From contig NZ_CP104311.1 in the NCBI RefSeq assembly GCF_036864975.1, positions 248,001 through 312,000 of the forward strand: a stretch of 64,000 bases of DNA, read 5' to 3'. Below are positions 4,140 through 63,811 of the stretch, piece by piece. The DNA is from Methylococcus capsulatus (GTDB lineage: Bacteria > Pseudomonadota > Gammaproteobacteria > Methylococcales > Methylococcaceae). The translations under genes were made by a program, and so were the position numbers. Under the pieces are notes generated by a model. It saw only the letters and a program-made list of their open reading frames with translations, was not told the DNA's origin and searched no databases. Within the stretch, counting starts at the first letter, position 1. Each line of letters opens with the position of its first letter.

Positions 4140-5675
4140 TCATTCCGCATCGGCCACCGAGGTCGGCCCTTCCGGCAGGGATTCGTGGACCCGGGCCAGG
4201 AAGGCGCTGACAGCACCGTCACTGAGATCGAGTGCCAGCCGCGGAAACAATCCCAGAACGATGACCCAAGCCACCAGCGCCGCCGCAACCAGACGTTCGC
4301 GCGGCCTAAGATCCAATTCGCCGGGCGCCGTCCCCAGTCTGTCCTGACCGAGGAAGGCCCGTCGGAAGTAGCCGAGCACGCAGGCCGCGGCGACGATACC
4401 GGCGAACAGAGCTGCGAGTCCCAGTCCTGGGTATTGTCGCAGCAGGCCGATCAGGATCAGATGCTCGGCTGCGAACCCACCGGTTCCGGGCGCGCCAAGG
4501 CTGGCCAGCCCCAGAACGAAGAACAGCGCGCTGAGCAGCGGCATCGGCTTCGCCAGGCCGCCCAATTGGTCGATTTCCGTCGAGCCGGTCCGGTGCTGGA
4601 TGAATCCGGCGACCAGGAACAGCCCGCCCGCCACGATGCCGAAATTGGCGAGCTGGAACAGCGCGCCTTGCACGGCCTGGAAGTTCAGAGCCGCGATGCC
4701 GGCGACGACCAGGCCGACATGACTGATGCTGGAAAACGCCAGCAGCCTGCGCAGATTGGTTTGCCGCATCGCCACGATGGCACCATAGGCGGCGGTGAGG
4801 ACGCCGACCCCCGCCACCAGCCCCCGGTATTCCAGTGCGGCCTGGGGGCTTAGGGGCACGGCGAAACGCACGATGCCGAAGGCGCCGAGTTTCAGGCCGG
4901 CCAGCCAGGCAGTGAGCCCCGCCGGTCCTTCCATGGCGAGGGTCGGCAGCCAGCCGTGGAAAGGGAACAGTGGCGCCTTGACGGCGAAGCCCAGCACAAA
5001 CAGAAGGAACACTGCCGTCGCCAGCTGTCCGTCGAGCGGGGTATCCAGCAGCGCTAGATAATCGAAGCTCAGGCCGGCAGGGGCCGGAACGCCGAGGAAG
5101 CGGGTGTGATTCAAAGCCAGCGTCAGGATGGCGAACAGCAAGGGGATGCCGCCCGCCAGCATGAACATGGCGTACTTGACGGCGGCGTAGCGGCGCTGCG
5201 GACCGGTGCCGGAAAAACCGGCCAGAAGGTAGACCGGAACGATCGTCAACTCCCAGAACAGGAAAAACAGCATGAGGTCGGTGGCGCAAAACACGCCGAC
5301 GGTCGCCCCCCCCAAAATCAGGATCATGCCGTAATACAGCCGCACCCGGTTTTGCACCGCCGTCCAGGAGGCCACGATCACGGCCACGTTGAGCACGGCG
5401 CCGAGCCACGGAAACAGCACCGTGACACCATCCACGCCGAGCTGGTAATAAACGTTGAGTGAAGGAATCCAGGCATGGCGCTCGACAAACTGCAGGCCGG
5501 GGGCGATCGGATCGAATCCCCACAGCAGCACCGTGGCCAGCAGCAGCTCCAGCGCCGCGGCCGCCAGAGCCAGCCTCCGGACGGTCTCCGGGTTCCGCAC
5601 GAAGGCCATCGCAAGACCCGCCGCGAATGGCAAACCGATCAGCAGACTGAGCAACGGCAAGGCATCGGAAATCAT
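4140..5675 (-). CDS. NuoM-like antiporter subunit, last gene of the DAB-type cluster
   Basis: A 511-residue polytopic protein of the NuoM/Mrp antiporter family (proton_antipo_M). It keeps the residues needed for proton translocation in NuoM: Glu142 in [11 protein letters not shown], Lys233 in [16 protein letters not shown] and Lys262 in AGLKLGAFG, matching E. coli NuoM E144, K234 and K265. It is the terminal gene of the minus-strand operon that starts at 13594, 19 bp after the preceding subunit. No NADH- or FeS-binding complex I genes are nearby, so I read it as part of a cation- or CO2-handling complex rather than respiratory complex I. The start at the ATG of MISDALPLL avoids overlap with the upstream gene. 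Confidence 0.85.
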
Positions 5676-5694
5676 GGTGTCGTCAACGCTTGGG

Positions 5695-7245
5695 TCATGA
5701 GGGGTGGGCGGATGGCCGCGAAGCGGCCGGCAGCGCCACGGACGGCGAGGCATGCGCTTGTGCCAGTCGGAGCAGCGACTGGCGGGCGAGATGGACCCAG
5801 GGAGCCGTATAGAATCCGACTCCCATCAGCACCAGGCACAAAAAGGCGATCAGCGTGTGTTCCGGCCAGAGCGGCCGCGGCCATTCGGGATAGGGCCGGC
5901 GCGAGCGGCGATGAGCCAGAAAGATGCGCTGGAACGCCCACAGCAAAAAGCCGGCCCCCAATACGTTGCCGACAGCGACTGCGGTCGCCGCGGCGAGACC
6001 TCGGTTCTCGATCAACCCTTCCAGCAGCAAATGGGCGGCATCGAAGCCGGGCGTCCCCGGCATGGCGATGGTGCTCGAGGCGGCGACCAGGAACAGCAGA
6101 CCCGGCCCCGGCAAGGATTCGAAGAGGCCACCCAGACGCGGCAGCAGCAGCGTACCGGTGCGGCACCGAAGCATGCCGGCCAGGAACAACAGGCCCGCAC
6201 CCGCGGCGCCGAAGTCGAAAGTCAGCAGCAGCGTACCGCTCAAACCCTCGAGGTTCAGCGCGAAAACACCGGCCACCAGCATTCCCGTCTGGCTGACCGT
6301 GGCGAAAGCCAGCAGGCGGCGGAAATCGAGCTGCATCAGCGCGAGCGCCGCGCCATAGAACAGACCGGCCAGCGCCAGGCCCAACGTCCACGCGTTCCAC
6401 TCGTGGACCGCGTTGGGCAAGAGCGGCAAAACGAAGCGTAGCAGACCATAGATGCCTATCTTCATGCCCACCAGCAAAGCCAGGGCGGTGACCGGCAGGC
6501 CCTGTGCCGCGACGATGGGCAGCCAGCCGTGCAGCGGAAACTGCGCCAGGCGCACCGAGAATCCGTAGAACAGCAGCAGGAACACCAGGGATTCGAGCCT
6601 ACCCGTAGGCGGGGTTTCCAGCAGCGCCGCCAAATCAAAAGACCAGACTCCCGTGACCCGCGCATGCCCCAACCCCAACAGGAAAATACCTCCCCCCAGC
6701 AGCGCCAGTCCCGTACCGGCGAAGCGCAGGTAGACACGCCGGGCCGCGGCGCCGCCTCCGCCACCCCAGCGCCCCAGGATCAAAGCGATCGGCCACAGCT
6801 CCAGACAGGCGGCAACCCAGAACTGGACCAGATCCAAGGTGAGAAACATACCCATCGCGGCAGCCTCGCAGGCCAGCACTGTCGCCACGTACAGCCCGGA
6901 AGGCCCGTCCTTTCCGACTTCCCGGCACAACAGGACCAGTACCGTTAACAGCGCGGTCAGCAGCACGAACCCCAAGCTGATGCCGTCGACGCCGAGGTGG
7001 TAATTCAGGAAGGACAGAAACACGGTGTGTTCCGTGAACTGGAAATCGGCGGTCGCCGCGTCAAACCGGGCCAACAGGAACAGGGCCACCCCCAACTCGG
7101 CGAGAGTGCCGACAAAGCCGATGATCCACGCCAGACCCCGGTTTTCCGCCCGCAGCGCCGCAAGCATGAACGCCAACGGCAAGCCGATCAGCGTGCTGAG
7201 CACCGGAAAACCGGTGACGTCGGCCCAGGATGGCTCACCCGTCAT
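5695..7245 (-). CDS. Divergent NuoM-like subunit with altered channel residues
   Basis: A 516-residue membrane protein, clearly of the NuoM family (LGVDGISLGFVLL; FPLHGWLPIVAAQG; RRLLAFATVSQTGMLVAG). Aligned to its sister at 4140-5675, the conserved channel Glu is Cys147, with a Glu two residues later at 149, and the conserved Lys of GFAVK is Arg232 (GFSVRLAQFP). The second Lys (Lys262, VGMKIGIYG) remains. This suggests altered or absent proton translocation and a structural or regulatory role in the membrane complex. The ATG at 7245 has GAGG eight bases upstream. A TTG at 7269 would extend it and overlap the DabB-like gene by 14 bp. Confidence 0.82.
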   Translation of the reverse strand: MTGEPSWADVTGFPVLSTLIGLPLAFMLAALRAENRGLAWIIGFVGTLAELGVALFLLARFDAATADFQFTEHTVFLSFLNYHLGVDGISLGFVLLTALLTVLVLLCREVGKDGPSGLYVATVLACEAAAMGMFLTLDLVQFWVAACLELWPIALILGRWGGGGGAAARRVYLRFAGTGLALLGGGIFLLGLGHARVTGVWSFDLAALLETPPTGRLESLVFLLLFYGFSVRLAQFPLHGWLPIVAAQGLPVTALALLVGMKIGIYGLLRFVLPLLPNAVHEWNAWTLGLALAGLFYGAALALMQLDFRRLLAFATVSQTGMLVAGVFALNLEGLSGTLLLTFDFGAAGAGLLFLAGMLRCRTGTLLLPRLGGLFESLPGPGLLFLVAASSTIAMPGTPGFDAAHLLLEGLIENRGLAAATAVAVGNVLGAGFLLWAFQRIFLAHRRSRRPYPEWPRPLWPEHTLIAFLCLVLMGVGFYTAPWVHLARQSLLRLAQAHASPSVALPAASRPSAHPS

Positions 7246-7255
7246 GGCACCCGCC

Positions 7256-8821
7256 TCATCCGATGGCAAACAGCGAAATCAGCAGCACCAGGCAGACATA
7301 GCGCGGCTGGGCGAGCAGGACTTCGAGCCGCTGCAGGGAATGCCCGAACCACCGTCCCGCCCGCCACAGATCGACGCCGCCCCCTTTGAGGACCAGGCGG
7401 TCCTCGAACCAATGCAGGCCGCTGGCGGTCCGGGCAACGATCCAGCCCGGAAGGCCGCCAATCCCCTGGCCCGCCTCAGCATCCAGGGGCACCCCGAAGC
7501 GCCGCTCCTCCCAATTGGCCAGTGCGGCGAGCCCCCGGACCGCAGGTTCCGGAGCGTCGACGAGACGGTCCAGCACCTGGCGGTCGAAGGTGTCGAAATC
7601 CTCCGCCAGACTCTGCACTGGCAGGACGCAGGCACGGTCCACCGCCGCCTCCAGCCAGAACCGGTTCAGCGAGGCGGCGTAGCCCCGGCGGCTGTTGGCC
7701 AACCAGGCCGGCAAAGGTCGGGTCGGCTGACCGCATAGCGCATGCATCAGCCCGGGCGCGGCGAGGAACTGGTAGCCCCGGACCACGGCGTGGGCGAACA
7801 GATGCCAGGCTGCAAGCTGCCAGAGCCCCAGGCCGCAGGCCAGGAACATCAATCCCACCTGGGCGAGAGTCGAAAACGCCAGAACGGATTTGACATCGGT
7901 CTGACTGAGTCCGCAAAAATAGCCGTAGAGCGCGGTCAAGAGTCCCGCCACCGCCATCAGCGCCGAAGCCACCTCCGCATGGACGAACAGCGGTTCGAGG
8001 CGCAGCACCAGATAGACCCCGGCATGGATCATCAGTGCTCCGTAGAAAATCGCGCTCGAGGGGGTCGGCCCCTCCATGGCGCGCGACAGCCAGGGCGAGA
8101 ACGGCACCTGGGCGGACTTGGCGAAAGCCGGAACCAAGAAGCAGGCGGCGACGAGGTTCTGCTTCTCCGGCGGGAGCTGCGCCAGGCCGACCAGTAACTT
8201 CGGCCACTCGATCTGACCGGTCCAGACGAAACCGAGGGCGATCGCCAGGACGAAACCGATGTCACCCACGCGGTTGGTCACGAAGGCTCGAGTGGCGTTA
8301 CCCGCCGCGACCGGACGGTCGTAGGCATAAGCGATCAGGAGGTAGGAGCAAACGCCGGCCAGTTCCCAGCCGAACAACGTCAGCACCGGATTCCCGGCCA
8401 GCACGAGGAGCTGCATCGCCCCGGCAAACAGGCTGAGCACCAGGAAGAACCGGTGGAAACCCCGCTCGCGGTGCAAGTAGTTGACGGAAAAGCGCGCGAC
8501 CAGATCGGCCATGAGGGCGATCAGCACGGACAAACCCAGGCTCAGGCGGTCGAGCTGGAGGCTGAGAAGCACGCGGTAGTCCGCGCTGGCCAGCCAGGTA
8601 CCTAGCACCGTTCGGGCATCGAGCGTGCCGGCCGATTCCAGCACCAGCAGCAGCAGAGCCAGCAGTCCGGATGCCCCCAGCGCCGATCGGACGAATCGGC
8701 CGCTCATCCGTTCGCAGGACTCCCCCTCCAGACGCCCGAGCGCTATGCCCGCGGCGATGCCCGCCGCAGCTGCGGCGGGCAGGATCGGAATCAGAACAGC
8801 GGCTTTTTCGAGATAGGCCAT
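7256..8821 (-). CDS. dabB: NuoL-like subunit, DabB-type inorganic carbon transporter
   Basis: A 521-residue NuoL/NdhF-like membrane protein immediately after the DUF2309 gene (8-bp gap), the arrangement that defines DAB (DabAB) CO2 pumps. The proton_antipo signature is present: LDRLSLGLSVLIALM, LFGWELAGVCSYLLI with the conserved Glu, AFAKSAQVPFSPWLSRAMEGPTPSSA with the conserved Lys, and GALMIHAGVYLVLR. The C-terminal third is soluble-looking and shorter than in NuoL, and the long lateral helix of complex I is not apparent. In characterised DABs the DabB partner is thought to couple cation flow to CO2 hydration by DabA. The functional call rests on family and synteny. Confidence 0.85.
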   Translation of the reverse strand: MAYLEKAAVLIPILPAAAAAGIAAGIALGRLEGESCERMSGRFVRSALGASGLLALLLLVLESAGTLDARTVLGTWLASADYRVLLSLQLDRLSLGLSVLIALMADLVARFSVNYLHRERGFHRFFLVLSLFAGAMQLLVLAGNPVLTLFGWELAGVCSYLLIAYAYDRPVAAGNATRAFVTNRVGDIGFVLAIALGFVWTGQIEWPKLLVGLAQLPPEKQNLVAACFLVPAFAKSAQVPFSPWLSRAMEGPTPSSAIFYGALMIHAGVYLVLRLEPLFVHAEVASALMAVAGLLTALYGYFCGLSQTDVKSVLAFSTLAQVGLMFLACGLGLWQLAAWHLFAHAVVRGYQFLAAPGLMHALCGQPTRPLPAWLANSRRGYAASLNRFWLEAAVDRACVLPVQSLAEDFDTFDRQVLDRLVDAPEPAVRGLAALANWEERRFGVPLDAEAGQGIGGLPGWIVARTASGLHWFEDRLVLKGGGVDLWRAGRWFGHSLQRLEVLLAQPRYVCLVLLISLFAIG

Positions 8822-8829
8822 GCGGGGCG

Positions 8830-11800
8830 TCAGACGGCGATCAAGGCGGGGGGCAGCGGCTCGGCGTGGCCTTCAAACCAGTCGGCCGAACGGTCGCACA
8901 GCGCCATTTCAGCCATCATGCCGGTCCAGGGAACGAAGCCCCGCTCTGGATCGAACACCGAGATCGTACCGTCCACCGGGTGATAGGCAGACAACAGGAT
9001 CCAGCCGTTGCCGACCAGTTCCCGGATCGGCGGCTGGCGGCGATAGATCGCCATCAGGATTTCCGGTGTCTGCTCCACGACGATCTGCAGCCGCATGGCT
9101 TCGTGGACTTCGGCCATCTGCCGCGGCAGACCGGTGCGCAGATCGCTGGCGGTGCCTTCCATGATGCCGAACAGCCCGGTCACGTTGTGGGCGACCTTGG
9201 AACCGCAGCCATAGCGCTCGTTGTTCACCGTGGAAAAATAGTATTCGAGGTTGATACCCGCCCCCACGGGACCCGCCACGAGCAGGATGCCTTCCAGGAT
9301 GCGACCTTCCGGATCATGGGTCGGATCATAGGAGATCAGGAACACCCGGCGGTCCAGGAACAGACCCCGGCTGACCGAACGCCTGCCGATCAGAGCAGCG
9401 GCATTGGTCGCATGGCCCAGTTCCGGCCGGGCCTGACTGAAATCCACCGAGCGCGCGATGACATGGCGCAGCGCCCGGCCTTGCGAGAGCCGTTTGGGCG
9501 CCGAGGCGAAACGGCGGCAGCGCTCCTGGGCCGAAAGGCGGCAGACCTCGTCCAGCTGCGCCGCCAAGGCATGCCAACCGATACGGTTCAAAGGGGGAAT
9601 GTCCTGTACGTCGAACCAGGTGATTTCCTCGCTACAGGTGTTGTGCTCGGCACCGACGAACCAGGTGTCATCCGGGATGGGCAAGCCCCGCTGCGCCAGT
9701 TGCGCCCGGACTTCGGGCCGGTTCGCCATGGCCGCGAACACCCGCGCATTGGGGCCGCCGTGGCGCCCGCTACAGGCGCCACAGTCGTATGCCGCAAGAT
9801 GCGGATTGTTCCGGCTGGCAGAGCCGTGTCCCATCAGCACGATGATGGGAGCGAAGCCCCGGATCAGGCCGATGTTCAGCAGGAAAGCCGCCACCCCGTC
9901 CGCCTGTTCGACCGCGGTCAGTCCCGGGCGGGGCCGCTCCGGACTGGCCGGAGCCGCGTCGTCCGCCGCATTCACAGCCAGCGTGGTCGGCACTTCGGGC
10001 ATCCAGAGTTCCACCAGCCGCCGGAAAAACTTAGCCGCGCGGCGCGGCAGCAGGATCTGCGCGATCAAACCAGCCGCGACGACCGGGGCCACCAGGTCGA
10101 TCAGCAGGTGGGAGCCGAACAGGTTACGCCGGATCTCCTGGTGGAAGATCCGGCCGAGAAACCGGATGGCTCCCCGCCGCCGGTCGCGTAATTGTCGAGT
10201 CGCTTCCGCACCGGGGCGGGGAATCTCGCGCACCTCATGGGAGGGTGTGACGACAATCGGGCACAGAGCCGTGGGTTCGGCATCGTCCAGTCCCCGCCAG
10301 TGCATGGGGATTCCGAAAAATCCGGCGCCCCCCAGGGTCTCCACGGCCGGGTTCAGTTCCTCCAGATGGCGGCGGAGTCCCTCTTCCCGGTCATCCATGC
10401 AGAACACGATCTGCGCTTGGGGGCGCTCGTCACGGACAGCCCAACGGCCGCGGCCGTGGTTGTTCACCAGCGCGTTGAAGAGAGGCTCGCGGTAGTGGCG
10501 TTCGTAGGCGCACAGCCAGAGGTAACCGCGGCGTGCGGGCGTCAATTCGTCCAAGGCGCGGAGCAGCCGAGCGATTTCACCGGCCGACAATGCCCGGACA
10601 TCATGCGCCGAAAGGCCCAGATGTTGGGCCAGCTTGAACAGCCGCCAGCCGCTGCCATGGAAGCCAAAGCGGAAGTCCTGCCCCCCACCCGGCGCATGGC
10701 GCCAGGAAAAAATCATGTCGGCGGCGACACGCCAGGGTTTCCTGTCGGCGCGCTCGCTGCCGGCGCGCCGTACCAAATCGGCGCAAGTCGCGGCCAGGAA
10801 TTCCGGCAAATCACCGCGGTACAAGGCGTGACGCACCACGAACTCCGAAAGATGTCGCTCGAAATAGCGTGCCAGTTCGCCGACGTGGCCTCCGATGCCC
10901 CAGGTTTCCGAACAGATCCGGCGAAGATAGCAGCGGTCCAGGATGAGACGGACCGCCAGATAGTCCATCAGACTCGCGGGCGCAGTCCGGTTGGCCCGAT
11001 AGGTCGGGTGGTGGGCCCGCCAGTTCATCATTCCGGACCAGCCGGGCAGCTCCAGCGCCAGGCGTTCCAGATAGCCTTCCCAGTAAGGCTGGGGGATGCC
11101 GCGCTGCTCGAGTTCGAAGACGACCGCCTCGGCCGGATCGTCGGGCAGACCGTCCAGCTCGGTGTGGTCCAGCGGTACCTCGCCAAGCCCCCGTTCGGCA
11201 CCATACCGCATGGAAAGCTTCCATGCGGTGTAGAAGCCATGCGCTCGGTCGGGAGCATGCCAGGCCGCCAGCCCTTCGTCGAGATATGAAGCGCAGTGAC
11301 GGATGAGCTGGGGCCGCACCGGGTCGAGCACGTCCTGCCCGGTCAGATTCAGTATGAAGCCACGGAGGGTCCGCTCCCGGCCTACGGCATCGATCTCTTC
11401 GGCGAGCAAGGCACGCGCCTCCTCGCGCATGGCGCGATGCAACGCCGAAAGGCCACTGCCGGAGGAGTCGGCCTTGAAATCGGCATACAGTGCTTCGGCC
11501 TGGGCGATGGCGTATTCCATCAAGTCTTCCGGATGCGCCGCGGCGCGTTCGTCCAGGCCCAGCCGCTCCAGACAGGCTTCCCACAGATCCCGCACCAGCC
11601 GGCGCGAGGCCACGGCGTCCTGGCGGCCGAGCTTGGCGGACTCCATGAGGCGGCGCCGGGCTTCGGCCGGAACTTCCGGATCGAAGCGGTCGAGTGCCTC
11701 GAGTTCATCGACCATCCAGGTGAAACGGGCGGGATCCAAGGGCTCGAGATCCACTGTCAGCCGCAGACGATGGATCTGCCGGCGGATGATCGGCTCGCCG

Positions 11801-12120
11801 CCGCCGGTCACGGCGAGAATTTCCTCACCTCCGCCCCCCAGGTGCCGATCGAGTACCGCATCGAGGTCGGCATCATCGATGCGGCCTTGCCGGTACAGCA
11901 CGCGGAATTGGCTTTCCGGCAGATAGCCGCGGATACCGGTGAGCCGCTCGGCCTCCTCCAGCGCGGTTGCGAAAGGCAAGTGCTGGAAGCCGTGCAGCGT
12001 ATTGTGATGCACAAAATCCCGGAGTGGCGCCTGACCCGGCAGCACGTGTTCCATGCGCCGGACGGCCTCGGCCAGGCGCGTCTTGACGTCAGTTGGGGCG
12101 GCGCCGCTCGGCTGGCTCAT
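8830..12120 (-). CDS. dabA: DUF2309 protein, DabA-type carbonic anhydrase subunit of a CO2 pump
   Basis: A 1096-residue DUF2309 (UPF0753) protein. The beta-carbonic-anhydrase-like zinc site described for DabA is complete: Cys574 and Asp576 in IVFCMDDREEG, His765 in LMGHGSASRNNP and Cys780 in AYDCGACSGRHGGP. The His-Cys spacing of 15 equals that of H. neapolitanus DabA (His524, Cys539). Such proteins hydrate CO2 to bicarbonate on the cytoplasmic side, driven by the DabB partner. It is longer than the roughly 830-residue DabA of H. neapolitanus. It lies 7 bp after the first NuoM-like gene and 8 bp before the DabB gene, so one transcript is likely. A methanotroph could use the pump to supply CO2 or bicarbonate for carboxylation reactions. 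Confidence 0.9.
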   Translation of the reverse strand: MSQPSGAAPTDVKTRLAEAVRRMEHVLPGQAPLRDFVHHNTLHGFQHLPFATALEEAERLTGIRGYLPESQFRVLYRQGRIDDADLDAVLDRHLGGGGEEILAVTGGGEPIIRRQIHRLRLTVDLEPLDPARFTWMVDELEALDRFDPEVPAEARRRLMESAKLGRQDAVASRRLVRDLWEACLERLGLDERAAAHPEDLMEYAIAQAEALYADFKADSSGSGLSALHRAMREEARALLAEEIDAVGRERTLRGFILNLTGQDVLDPVRPQLIRHCASYLDEGLAAWHAPDRAHGFYTAWKLSMRYGAERGLGEVPLDHTELDGLPDDPAEAVVFELEQRGIPQPYWEGYLERLALELPGWSGMMNWRAHHPTYRANRTAPASLMDYLAVRLILDRCYLRRICSETWGIGGHVGELARYFERHLSEFVVRHALYRGDLPEFLAATCADLVRRAGSERADRKPWRVAADMIFSWRHAPGGGQDFRFGFHGSGWRLFKLAQHLGLSAHDVRALSAGEIARLLRALDELTPARRGYLWLCAYERHYREPLFNALVNNHGRGRWAVRDERPQAQIVFCMDDREEGLRRHLEELNPAVETLGGAGFFGIPMHWRGLDDAEPTALCPIVVTPSHEVREIPRPGAEATRQLRDRRRGAIRFLGRIFHQEIRRNLFGSHLLIDLVAPVVAAGLIAQILLPRRAAKFFRRLVELWMPEVPTTLAVNAADDAAPASPERPRPGLTAVEQADGVAAFLLNIGLIRGFAPIIVLMGHGSASRNNPHLAAYDCGACSGRHGGPNARVFAAMANRPEVRAQLAQRGLPIPDDTWFVGAEHNTCSEEITWFDVQDIPPLNRIGWHALAAQLDEVCRLSAQERCRRFASAPKRLSQGRALRHVIARSVDFSQARPELGHATNAAALIGRRSVSRGLFLDRRVFLISYDPTHDPEGRILEGILLVAGPVGAGINLEYYFSTVNNERYGCGSKVAHNVTGLFGIMEGTASDLRTGLPRQMAEVHEAMRLQIVVEQTPEILMAIYRRQPPIRELVGNGWILLSAYHPVDGTISVFDPERGFVPWTGMMAEMALCDRSADWFEGHAEPLPPALIAV

Positions 12121-12127
12121 GTCCGGC

Positions 12128-13594
12128 TCAAAGGAATTCGGGCTGGAAGGCTGCCAGATAATGACCGATCGAAACCCTGCTCAGATCGAGCATCGCAGCC
12201 GGGGCGAGACCGAGCCAGACGATGGCCGCAGCCAGGGAGAGCGCACCGGCGAATTCCGCCGGGCGCATATCTGCCAAGCCGGACATCGCCGGTTTGGCCG
12301 GCCCGGCAACCAGCGCGGCGACACTCCGCAGCGCATAGGCACCGCCGACCAGCACCCCGAAGCTGGCGACCAGCATCCAGGCACCGAAACTCTGGAAGCC
12401 GCCGAGCATTGCATGCAATTCGGCAACGAAGCTGGCCGAACCGGGCAGCCCCATAGAAGCCAGCAGAGCCACCACGGTAAACGCCGCGAAGCTGGGCGCG
12501 GTTCGGCCCAGGGCTCCGTAATCGGCGAGTTCGCGGGTATGGGTGCGTTCATACAGGAGGCCGATCAAAAGAAACAGCGCAGCCGCGACCAGGCCGTGGG
12601 CGGTCATCTGCATCACCGCGCCGGTCAGACCCACCGGGTTCAGCGTAGCGAGCCCCAGCAGCACGAAGCCCATGTGGCTGACCGAGGAATAGGCAACCAT
12701 GGCCTTCAGGTCGCTCTGGCGCCAGGCCAGCAGCGCACCGTACACAATCCCGATCAGGGCGATCGCCGCCAGCCACGGCTGCATCAGGAGCACCGCGTCC
12801 GGCAGCATGGCACAGGCGCGGATCAGGCCGTAAGCCCCCATCTTCAGCAAGACACCGGACAGCAGAATGCTGATGGGACCGGGCGCCTCGACATGCGCCA
12901 GCGGCAGCCAGCCGTGCAGGGGAAATACCGGCATCTTCACGCCGAAGCCGATGAGGAGGCCGAGGAAGATCAAGACCTGGCGGCCGTGCGGCAGCCCCCG
13001 GGCCGTGGACTGCATCGAATCCATCAGGGTCGAATGCTCGGTGGAGGCGGTGTAGACCATGAGCAGGGCGATCAGCATGAACACCGAGCCGCCCATGGTG
13101 TAGAGCACGAAATTCAGGGCGGCGCCGTGCCTGCGCTGGCCGCCCCACTGATCGATCAGAAAGAACAGCGGGATCAGCGTCAGCTCCCAGAACAGGTAGA
13201 ACAACGCCCAGTCACGGGCGAGGAACACACCCAGCATCCCGAACTCCAGGCTCAGGAAAGCGACGTAATAGCCGCGCGGCCGGACGCCACCCCGTCCTGC
13301 CAGCAAGGCCACGACGCAGAGGAAGGCCGACAGCAGCACCATGGGCAGCGAGAAACCATCGACTCCCAAAGCATAGAAACTGCCCATGCCGGGATTCCAG
13401 GGCAGCATTTCGCCGAACTGGATGTCCGGCAAAGTCGTCTCGAAACGGCTGGCGACGAGCAGCGTCAACAGCAGGGTCAGTCCGCTGAATCCCAGAGCAA
13501 TGCTGCAGGACTGCCGGTGTGAACGTTGCGGCAGGAAGGCCAGCACCAGAGCGCCTGCGAGAGGCGTCCAGAGGAGGCAGCTCAAGATTTTCAC
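12128..13594 (-). CDS. NuoM-like antiporter subunit, first gene of the DAB-type cluster
   Basis: A NuoM-family membrane protein of about 488 residues with the canonical residues intact: Glu137 in FYLFWELTLIP, Lys220 in GFGVKMPVFPLHGWLP and Lys251 in SGVLLKMGAYGLIR. The frame is open much further upstream, but that part is not membrane-like and overlaps the start of gltX on the other strand. I start at the GTG at 13594 (reading MKILSCLLWTPLAGALVLAF), which has GGGA about 11 bases upstream. It leads the five-gene operon and ends 7 bp before dabA. Confidence 0.82.
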   Translation of the reverse strand: MKILSCLLWTPLAGALVLAFLPQRSHRQSCSIALGFSGLTLLLTLLVASRFETTLPDIQFGEMLPWNPGMGSFYALGVDGFSLPMVLLSAFLCVVALLAGRGGVRPRGYYVAFLSLEFGMLGVFLARDWALFYLFWELTLIPLFFLIDQWGGQRRHGAALNFVLYTMGGSVFMLIALLMVYTASTEHSTLMDSMQSTARGLPHGRQVLIFLGLLIGFGVKMPVFPLHGWLPLAHVEAPGPISILLSGVLLKMGAYGLIRACAMLPDAVLLMQPWLAAIALIGIVYGALLAWRQSDLKAMVAYSSVSHMGFVLLGLATLNPVGLTGAVMQMTAHGLVAAALFLLIGLLYERTHTRELADYGALGRTAPSFAAFTVVALLASMGLPGSASFVAELHAMLGGFQSFGAWMLVASFGVLVGGAYALRSVAALVAGPAKPAMSGLADMRPAEFAGALSLAAAIVWLGLAPAAMLDLSRVSIGHYLAAFQPEFL

Positions 13595-18327: not shown

Positions 18328-18404
18328 CGGGGTATAGCGCAGTCTGGTAGCGCGTCTGCTTTGGGAGCAGAATGTCGGGGGTTCGAATCCCTCTACCCCG
18401 ACCA
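18328..18404 (+). tRNA. tRNA-Pro (anticodon TGG)
   Basis: A complete cloverleaf: acceptor CGGGGTA pairs with TACCCCG, the anticodon loop holds TGG, the T arm is GGGGGTTCGAATCCC, and the CCA is encoded. It is the first of four tandem tRNA genes. Confidence 0.95.
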
Positions 18405-18409
18405 ATCAA

Positions 18410-18486
18410 GCGCTTGTAGCTCAGCCGGATAGAGCATCGGCCTTCTAAGCCGAGGGTCGCAGGTTCGAGTCCTGCCAGGCGCGCCA
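18410..18486 (+). tRNA. tRNA-Arg (anticodon TCT)
   Basis: Acceptor GCGCTTG pairs with CAGGCGC, the anticodon stem TCGGC/GCCGA carries loop CTTCTAA (anticodon TCT), and the CCA end is encoded. It starts 6 nt after tRNA-Pro. Confidence 0.95.
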
Positions 18487-18494
18487 ATTTCAGT

Positions 18495-18571
18495 GGTGAC
18501 CGTAGCTCAGTCGGTAGAGTCCCGGATTGTGATTCCGGTTGTCGTGGGTTCGAGCCCCATCGGTCACCCCA
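18495..18571 (+). tRNA. tRNA-His (anticodon GTG)
   Basis: Acceptor GTGACCG pairs with CGGTCAC. An encoded extra G at 18495 is the G-1 expected of tRNA-His, opposite discriminator C. The anticodon stem CCGGA/TCCGG carries GTG, and CCA is encoded. Confidence 0.95.
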
Positions 18572-18583
18572 TCCCCGTGTTAC

Positions 18584-18659
18584 GGGCCATTAGCTCAGCT
18601 GGTAGAGCAGCGGACTCTTAATCCGTTTGTCGTAGGTTCGATCCCTACATGGCCCACCA
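18584..18659 (+). tRNA. tRNA-Lys (anticodon CTT)
   Basis: Acceptor GGGCCAT pairs with ATGGCCC, the loop CTCTTAA has anticodon CTT, the T arm is intact, and CCA is encoded. It is the last gene of the tRNA cluster. Confidence 0.94.
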
Positions 18660-62581: not shown

Positions 62582-62906
62582 ATGAAGAAGTCAGTAAAGT
62601 TCTCCCCCGAGGTTCGTGAGCGTGCCGTACGCTGGGTATTTGAATGCCGCAGCGAACACCCCTCCCAATGGGCGGCCATTGAGTCTGTCGCCGCGAAGAT
62701 CGGCTGTTCCTCGCAAACCTTACAGTGCTTGGATACGCCGGCATGAGACGGACACCGGGCAGCGCGATGGCGTGACCACCGCTGAACGACAGCGCATCAA
62801 GGCGCTGGAACGCGAAGTGAAGGCACTGCGCAAGGCCAACGAGATTCTGCGACTGGCCAGCGCGTTTTTTGCCCAGGCGGAGCTCGACCGCCGATTCAAG
62901 TCATGA
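62582..62906 (+). pseudogene. IS3-family orfA, frameshifted
   Basis: The N-terminal part [20 protein letters not shown] and [16 protein letters not shown] is a helix-turn-helix OrfA. An extra base near 62727 shifts the frame, and the rest ([20 protein letters not shown] and the leucine-zipper [20 protein letters not shown]) is in the next frame. This is upstream of the usual orfA/orfB programmed shift, so it is probably a loss-of-function mutation. Confidence 0.78.
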
Positions 62907-63811
62907 GGACATTCATCGACGAACACCGGGATGCTTTCGGGGTCGAGCCGATCTGCAAAGTTCTGCGGATCGCCCCGTCCGGGTATCGACGGTACGCGGC
63001 CCAGCAGCGCCATCCGGCGCTGCGCTGTGCCCGTGCCCAGCGTGATGACCGCCTGATCCCGCAGATTGAACGGGTTTGGGTGACCAACCTGCAGGTCTAT
63101 GGCGCCGACAAAGTCTGGAAGCAGTTGAACCGCGAAGGCATCGGGGTGGCCCGCTGCACCGTCGAGCGCCTCAGGAAGCGGCAGGGCCTGCGCGGCGTCA
63201 TCCGGGGCAAGGTGGTCCGCACGACTGTCGCGGATACGACTGCGCCTTGCCCGCTGGATCGCGTCAACCGGCAATTCACGGCTTCTCGCCCGAATCAGCT
63301 CGGGGTCGCCGATTTCACCTACGTCTCGACCTGGCAAGGCTGGCTGTACGTGGCTTTTGTCATCGACGTCTTTGCCCGGCGCATCGTCGGCTGGAAGGTG
63401 AGTCGTTCCATGCACACCGACTTCGTGCTCGACGCCTTGCAACAAGCCCGGTACGCCCGTCGGCCTGAGCGCGAGGAGGCCCTGATCCATCCCAGTGACA
63501 GAGGCTCCCAGTACGTCTCGATCCGCTACAGCGAGCCTCCGACCGAAGCCGGCCTGGAACCTTCCGTGGGCAGCAAGGGCGACAGCTATGACAACGCGTT
63601 GGCCGAGACCATCAACAGGCTGTACAAAGCCGAATTGATTCACCGGCGGGCGCCCTGGAAAACCGGGGAAGCCGTGGAACTGGCCACCCTGGAATGGGTG
63701 GCCTGGTTTAACCACTCCAGGCTACTTGAACCCATTGGCTATATTCCTCCGGCTGAAGCGGAGGCAAACTACTACCGGCAAATCACCAATCAGGCCACCA
63801 CTCCGGCCTGA
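62903..63811 (+). CDS. IS3-family transposase OrfB
   Basis: A 302-residue OrfB with an rve integrase core. The DDE residues lie in [20 protein letters not shown] (Asp), [14 protein letters not shown] (Asp) and [18 protein letters not shown] (Glu). The start ATG overlaps the orfA end in an ATGA, typical of IS3 elements, where the active OrfAB fusion arises by frameshifting. OrfB looks intact, but the broken orfA probably prevents autonomous transposition. Confidence 0.92.

What the first reader, a model, noticed from the sequence alone, without database searches (positions are those of the whole stretch)
4140..13594. Expanded DAB-type carbon pump: DabA with four antiporter-like subunits
Seen: five co-directional genes with gaps of 7-19 bp, comprising NuoM-like, DUF2309 (DabA), NuoL-like (DabB), NuoM-like and NuoM-like subunits, with no complex I peripheral-arm genes. 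Established: DabA-DabB pairs are energy-coupled CO2 hydration pumps. Inference: this is a larger complex in which three further antiporter-like subunits add ion-translocating channels, perhaps letting a methanotroph take up CO2 at a low driving force or exchange H+ and Na+.
Basis: partly seen in the sequence, partly recalled or inferred. Interest (0 to 1): 0.8.

Follow-up and report, generated by a model that had tools for sequence, protein, structure and literature searches.

The report
Five-gene bacterial CO2-hydration pump array
A methane-eating bacterium carries a known type of CO2-capturing enzyme (DabA) tied into one conserved gene set with four proton-channel-like membrane proteins instead of the usual one, and natural versions in relatives that lost the enzyme part have mostly also lost proton-relay residues, which suggests the channels work for the enzyme.

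Summary
On the minus strand, 4140-13594, five tightly packed genes encode NuoM-like M1, a 1096-aa DabA, NuoL-like DabB, and NuoM-like M2 and M3. The genome has a separate nuo operon. It is not unique to this genome or to methanotrophs: the same set occurs in Methylococcales, Magnetococcales, Rhodocyclaceae and Polyangium. In 397 Pseudomonadota genomes long DabA and M2 co-occur 27/27, and where DabA has moved away the four membrane genes stay together. DabA keeps its zinc ligands and its model best matches beta-carbonic anhydrases. M1, M3 and DabB keep their proton-relay residues almost without exception; M2 does not, but has its own fixed set, so 'three extra channels' is better put as two canonical plus one modified. 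In several relatives DabA lost its catalytic site or whole catalytic half. Most of these also lost relay residues in DabB, M1 or M3, yet the membrane genes remain under purifying selection. I read this as a PMF-coupled five-subunit vectorial carbonic anhydrase, a new variant of DAB. Physical assembly, stoichiometry and the low-driving-force idea are untested. A 2017 paper already noted NuoM genes beside this family.

The parts
12128..13594 (-). M1, NuoM-like antiporter subunit (488 aa, GTG start), canonical proton-relay residues (E144, K234, K265, H322, E407, NuoM numbering)
   Evidence: Pfam PF00361, TIGR01972 487 bits; residues invariant in 51 sequences, 44 distinct
8830..12120 (-). DabA, long form, 1096 aa; Zn-ligand set C574, D576, H765, C780; His903 where DabA2 has Leu658
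   Evidence: PF10070 844 bits; sites conserved in 50 of 50 distinct five-gene DabA; AF2 model best matches beta-carbonic anhydrases, CsoSCA Z 9.2
7256..8821 (-). DabB, NuoL-like, 521 aa, PF00361 match ends at residue 360; keeps E144, R175, D178, K229 (NuoL numbering)
   Evidence: PF00361 + PF00662; AF2 model vs NuoL, 393 residues at 2.3 A; E144, D178 and K229 49/49, R175 R48/K1
5695..7245 (-). M2, divergent NuoM-like subunit: no TM5 Glu, TM7 Arg for Lys, TM8 Lys kept, TM12 Glu407 replaced by an H408 + E412 pattern
   Evidence: PF00361 114 bits; R234 47/47, K265 47/47, H408 47/47, E412 45/47
4140..5675 (-). M3, NuoM-like subunit, canonical relay residues
   Evidence: PF00361 207 bits; E144, K234, K265 47/47, E407 46/47 with one gap

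Best explanation
[quoted passage not shown] Protons running down the membrane potential through DabB, M1 and M3 drive DabA to hydrate CO2 one way to bicarbonate. M2 is a modified link or gate rather than an ordinary channel. Shown here: gene content, co-inheritance, conserved zinc and relay residues, a long-DabA-specific insertion set, and concurrent loss of catalytic and relay residues in several relatives. Inferred: physical assembly, direction of flux, the number of ions, and M2's role.
For: Fixed order M1-A-B-M2-M3 across Methylococcales, Magnetococcales, Rhodocyclaceae and Polyangium. Long DabA and M2 co-occur in exactly the same 27 of 397 genomes; in Methylococcales 129 of 234 genomes carry M2. 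In G362 and G113 the DabA gene has moved, yet M1, B, M2, M3 stay clustered. M1, M2, M3 and B form separate groups with parallel branching, apart from nuoL/M/N; distance matrices correlate 0.89-0.94. DabA zinc ligands 50/50; model matches beta-CA. Long DabA has about 220 aa of insertions absent from both two-gene classes. Beta-CA and SulP genes follow M3 in six Methylococcales loci. Of twelve genomes with a degraded or strongly diverged DabA in this gene set, ten have lost at least one relay residue in DabB, M1 or M3 (exceptions: G485, and G560, whose B and M3 were not found), while the membrane subunits show pairwise dN/dS of about 0.10-0.18. DAB2, the characterised relative, is PMF-dependent (PMC13144422).
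Against: No biochemical data; gene linkage and co-inheritance do not prove one particle. The TM5 Glu in DabB, His903 and the missing finger Glu also mark two-gene A-B pairs without M genes, so they are not evidence for docking of M1-M3. The finger Glu that is essential in DAB2 is absent, so the proton path cannot be identical. One H+ suffices energetically at normal pmf. Relatives that lack the catalytic domain but keep the membrane genes under purifying selection imply some further function. Co-loss is imperfect: G559, G560 and G566 lost catalysis but keep M1's relay, and G485 keeps all relays.
Confidence: 0.66

Rival explanations
1. DabA-DabB is the pump by itself, and M1-M3 form a separate cation/proton antiporter made from the same operon, balancing pH or Na+ during bicarbonate accumulation.
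For: Two-gene DAB complexes work alone (PMC13144422); the related A-B two-gene class has no M genes; M1-M3 resemble NuoM/MrpD.
Against: DabB sits between M genes in the operon, and in both genomes where DabA moved, DabB stayed with the M genes; in the split clusters of genus code g267, M1 goes with DabA and B with M2-M3; no small Mrp-type subunit is in the cluster; relay residues in M1 and M3 are lost in several lineages with degraded DabA.
Confidence: 0.16
2. The machine runs the other way: an exergonic reaction in DabA drives ion export through the array, as proposed for the family in 2017.
For: PMC5700660 proposed it, with ion number following subunit number; methanotrophs make CO2 inside the cell.
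Against: DAB2 depends on membrane potential and is blocked by uncoupler (PMC13144422); CO2 hydration yields too little energy to export several H+ at ordinary pmf (arithmetic read in reverse).
Confidence: 0.06
3. The complex has another main function (ion homeostasis, gas sensing or a scaffold), and carbonic anhydrase activity is secondary.
For: Relatives keep M1, B, M2, M3 under purifying selection after losing the DabA catalytic domain and many relay residues.
Against: Zinc ligands are invariant in 50 of 50 intact five-gene DabA; neighbouring CA and SulP genes point to inorganic carbon; relay residues decay in several DabA-degraded lineages.
Confidence: 0.09
4. M1-M3 are spare complex I subunits.
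For: Best family matches are NuoM.
Against: A nuo operon with its own L, M, N lies elsewhere; M1-M3 group apart from NuoM.
Confidence: 0.03

Closest known systems
DAB2 of Halothiobacillus neapolitanus (DabA2-DabB2, PDB 9rd0)
   Same: DabA fold family and zinc-ligand set; NuoL-like DabB partner; operon pairing
   Different: Gene order A-B not B-A; DabA about 250 aa longer than the B-A class; no finger Glu444 (Glu 49/49 in the B-A class); His for Leu658 (50/50 against 0/49); DabB keeps TM5 Glu (49/49) where the B-A class does not; three extra NuoM-like subunits
DAB1 of H. neapolitanus (DabA1, small membrane protein, DabB1)
   Same: DAB with an extra membrane protein (PMC13144422)
COGNAT 'clade C' operons (ybcC upstream of nuoL with COG1008 NuoM and COG0659 SulP)
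   Same: Probably includes this locus type; same A-before-B order, NuoM and SulP neighbours; the ion-number idea was stated there (PMC5700660)
   Different: The text read does not define the fixed five-gene set, the long DabA, the residue signatures, the modified M2, or catalysis-dead versions
Respiratory complex I membrane arm (NuoL, M, N)
   Same: Antiporter-like subunits with TM5 Glu/TM7 Lys ion pair, TM8 Lys and TM12 Glu; DabB model matches NuoL
   Different: No peripheral arm, quinone or NADH module; M1-M3 group apart from NuoM

Membership tests
DAB (DabAB) vectorial carbonic anhydrases | DabA of family PF10070 | tested here: met
   844 bits over 747 of 747 positions
DAB (DabAB) vectorial carbonic anhydrases | beta-CA-like zinc ligand set Cys, Asp, His, Cys (C351, D353, H524, C539) | tested here: met
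   C574, D576, H765, C780 in 50/50 five-gene DabA
DAB (DabAB) vectorial carbonic anhydrases | NuoL-like DabB next to DabA | tested here: met
   PF00361 + PF00662, gap 8 bp; model vs NuoL
DAB2 subtype (two-subunit, B-A order) | DabA finger Glu444 entering DabB | tested here: not met
   E in 49/49 B-A pairs; L, A, N, D, T, V and others in five-gene DabA; alignment of this stretch between classes is uncertain
DAB2 subtype (two-subunit, B-A order) | Leu658 in place of the beta-CA Gln/His | tested here: not met
   His in 50/50 five-gene, Leu in 49/49 B-A pairs
DAB (DabAB) vectorial carbonic anhydrases | PMF-dependent CO2 hydration or DIC uptake | not testable with these tools
   needs complementation and uptake assays
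Complex I (NDH-1) | peripheral-arm genes with the membrane subunits | tested here: not met
   none at the locus; nuo operon elsewhere
Mrp/CPA3 antiporter | small subunits (MrpB, C, E, F, G types) with MrpA and MrpD | tested here: not met
   the five genes fill 4140-13594 with 7-19 bp gaps and each is DabA, NuoL-like or NuoM-like

The most novel reading that the evidence does not exclude
A multi-proton-coupled carbonic anhydrase: one CO2-hydrating subunit driven by an array of four complex-I-type subunits with at least three working proton channels, able to trap CO2 at very low pmf. In one methanotroph lineage the array was kept under selection after losing both catalysis and much of the proton wire, so it gained another role.
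Probability: 0.3. Interest if true: 0.82.

Novelty: new variant of a known kind. Interest (0 to 1): 0.64.

Why it matters
DAB pumps are known as two- or three-gene systems with one channel subunit. A fixed five-gene form, found in more than half of the sampled Methylococcales genomes, links a carbonic anhydrase to a complex-I-like array without any redox module. That gives a simple system in which to ask how chemistry is coupled to rows of antiporter-like subunits, a long-standing question for complex I. The naturally catalysis-dead versions offer ready-made comparison points.

Tried and rejected
1) I first took the TM5 Glu of DabB (present in all five-gene, absent in all B-A two-gene sequences) as evidence that DabB packs against the M subunits. 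The control rejected this: A-B two-gene pairs without M genes have it too (15/15). 2) A NuoL-like lateral helix at the DabB C-terminus as a clamp over M1-M3: the model is too poor there (pLDDT under 50 at 422-459), and the DAB2 paper describes a short one in DabB2. 3) Long DabA without neighbours (L104, L139) as counter-examples: their membrane genes sit elsewhere as intact clusters. 4) G626 and G499 as long DabA without M2: G499's contig ends inside the next gene, dabB; G626 is a different four-gene type. 5) The fold search against solved structures did not list 9rd0, so DabA could not be compared with DabA2 by fold. 6) Searches for papers on this gene set in methanotrophs found none in the open library. 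7) Plasmids carry only distant DabA, none covering 80% of the query.

Full report
What is there. Five minus-strand genes occupy 4140-13594 in the order M1, dabA, dabB, M2, M3, with gaps of 7, 8, 10 and 19 bp. Pfam and NCBIfam give DabA (844 bits over the whole model), a NuoL-like DabB, and three NuoM-like subunits, M2 being much the weakest. The neighbours, a cyclophilin and gltX, are unrelated. The genome (3.43 Mb, one contig; the nearest named relative is Methylococcus capsulatus Texas at 86% DabA identity) has one DabA, a nuo operon with peripheral-arm genes elsewhere, two further large antiporter-like genes at about 2.28 Mb that I take to be Mrp-type from their size, three beta-CA family genes and RuBisCO.

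How general it is. A protein search of species genomes returned 31 loci; wherever the contig was long enough the order was again M1-A-B-M2-M3, in Methylococcales, Magnetococcales, a Rhodocyclaceae MAG, other gammaproteobacterial MAGs and two Polyangium genomes. A sample of 397 Pseudomonadota genomes had DabA over the family cut-off in 72; neighbourhoods show two main kinds: DabA of about 800-860 aa after DabB (B-A pairs), and DabA of about 1100 aa in the five-gene set. An M2 profile found M2 in exactly the 27 genomes with long DabA (set comparison), with a clear score gap from paralogues except in one genome (G109) where M2 is incomplete. In Methylococcales 129 of 234 genomes have M2. In the two genomes where long DabA stands alone (G362, G113), the other four genes form an intact cluster elsewhere, in one case in a changed order. 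So the four membrane genes and long DabA are inherited as a set. Distances between subunits correlate at 0.89-0.94, and M1, M2, M3 and DabB form their own groups apart from complex I subunits (M2 and M3 are sisters, and the Polyangium M3 is not firmly placed with the other M3).

Residues. All 50 distinct five-gene DabA keep the zinc-ligand set known from DAB2. The AF2 model (mean pLDDT 77) has carboxysomal and other beta-carbonic anhydrases as its top six fold matches, best Z 9.2. M1 and M3 keep the TM5 Glu, TM7 Lys, TM8 Lys, His322 and TM12 Glu described for NuoM (PMC9271201) in practically every sequence. M2 has none of the TM5 Glu, Arg instead of TM7 Lys in 47/47, TM8 Lys in 47/47, and His408 (47/47) with Glu412 (45/47) in place of Glu407; the basal Polyangium M2 still has Glu407. 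M2 is therefore specialised, not simply decayed.

Comparison with DAB2, and a control that mattered. Against the cryo-EM work on DAB2 (PMC13144422), the five-gene form has His at the Leu658 position (50/50; the paper found Leu strictly conserved in 150 homologues), lacks the finger Glu444, and has the TM5 Glu in DabB that DabB2 replaces by Ile. I first read the Glu as a docking sign for M1-M3. But a third class, two-gene A-B pairs common in Methylococcales, has the same His and Glu and no finger Glu, without any M gene (15/15). These features mark the A-B lineage, not the expansion. What is particular to the five-gene set is about 220 aa of insertions in DabA (99-128, 139-190, 202-248, 418-514) and the three M subunits.

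A natural experiment. Some Methylococcales, mostly one genus code (g267), keep the gene set with a degraded DabA. In G570 and G574 DabA is about 530 aa, ends before the catalytic domain, and sits in an otherwise intact M1-A-B-M2-M3 operon. In G559, G560 and G566 catalytic residues are gone; G571 keeps only the first part of the domain; G485 has one and G590 more than one zinc-ligand change; G561, G562, G565 and G572 keep zinc ligands but have lost other invariant positions. Relay residues are lost in ten of these twelve: for example G570 and G574 have DabB E144Q, R175Q, D178T, K229L, M1 K234S and E407Q, M3 E144Q and K265T, whereas the M2 Arg and Lys are kept in 12/12 and its His in 10/12. The pattern is imperfect: G559, G560 and G566 keep M1's relay, G485 keeps all, and for G560 DabB and M3 were not found. 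On the M2 tree the genomes with changes fall in at least three separate places. Pairwise dN/dS is about 0.10-0.18 for M1, B, M2, M3 and about 0.21-0.23 for the shortened DabA, so these are not free-running pseudogenes. Concurrent loss of the catalytic site and the proton wire suggests the two are coupled in the intact complex. It also shows that the array can be kept for something else. These genomes often hold another DabA class.

Mechanism. I favour a pmf-driven, five-subunit vectorial carbonic anhydrase. Shown: gene set, co-inheritance, conserved catalytic and relay residues, concurrent loss. Inferred: one particle, inward proton flow, more than one H+ per CO2, M2 as a link or gate. Simple arithmetic says one H+ at 150 mV permits about 340-fold accumulation over equilibrium, so several H+ would pay off only at low pmf or very scarce CO2; at 30 mV four H+ would give about 110-fold. 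Support for an inorganic-carbon role from context: beta-CA and SulP genes directly follow M3 in six Methylococcales loci.

Prior work. In 2017 a neighbourhood study described ybcC (DabA) upstream of nuoL with extra NuoM and SulP genes and suggested that the number of subunits sets the number of ions (PMC5700660). The fixed five-gene set, its spread, the residue signatures, the modified M2 and the catalysis-dead forms were not found in the papers searched; the library lacks most subscription journals.

Verdict. Confirmed observation; interpretation partly supported; a new variant of a known kind.

Noticed in passing
L174, L182 (contiguous); L179+L171, L181+L172, L180+L173, L183+L190 (split): Five-gene sets whose DabA lacks the catalytic domain or its residues, with membrane genes under purifying selection; what these do is unexplained.
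   Followed up: partly
L169 5802-14275: A different four-gene array in a Methylococcales-order genome: divergent DabA (1108 aa, Leu at the 658 position), a full-length NuoL-like protein (683 aa) and two NuoM-like subunits; possibly an independent expansion.
   Followed up: no
L147-L149, L151, L153-L161; L008 3187-7664; L135: A third DAB class in A-B order, two genes, DabA about 870 aa and DabB about 650 aa, common in Methylococcales; in L008 and L151 it lies beside the five-gene set.
   Followed up: partly
L096 3835-7935: One 1367-aa open frame matches both DabA and NuoL: possible DabB-DabA fusion gene.
   Followed up: no
L008, L009, L010, L012, L022, L029, downstream of M3: Beta-carbonic anhydrase gene about 150-170 bp after M3, then a SulP-type transporter gene.
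   Followed up: partly
window 62861-62977: ALIL pseudoknot (RF01497, 120 bits), the frameshift element of IS3-type transposases (family role from general knowledge).
   Followed up: no
window 18328-18656: Cluster of four tRNA genes.
   Followed up: no
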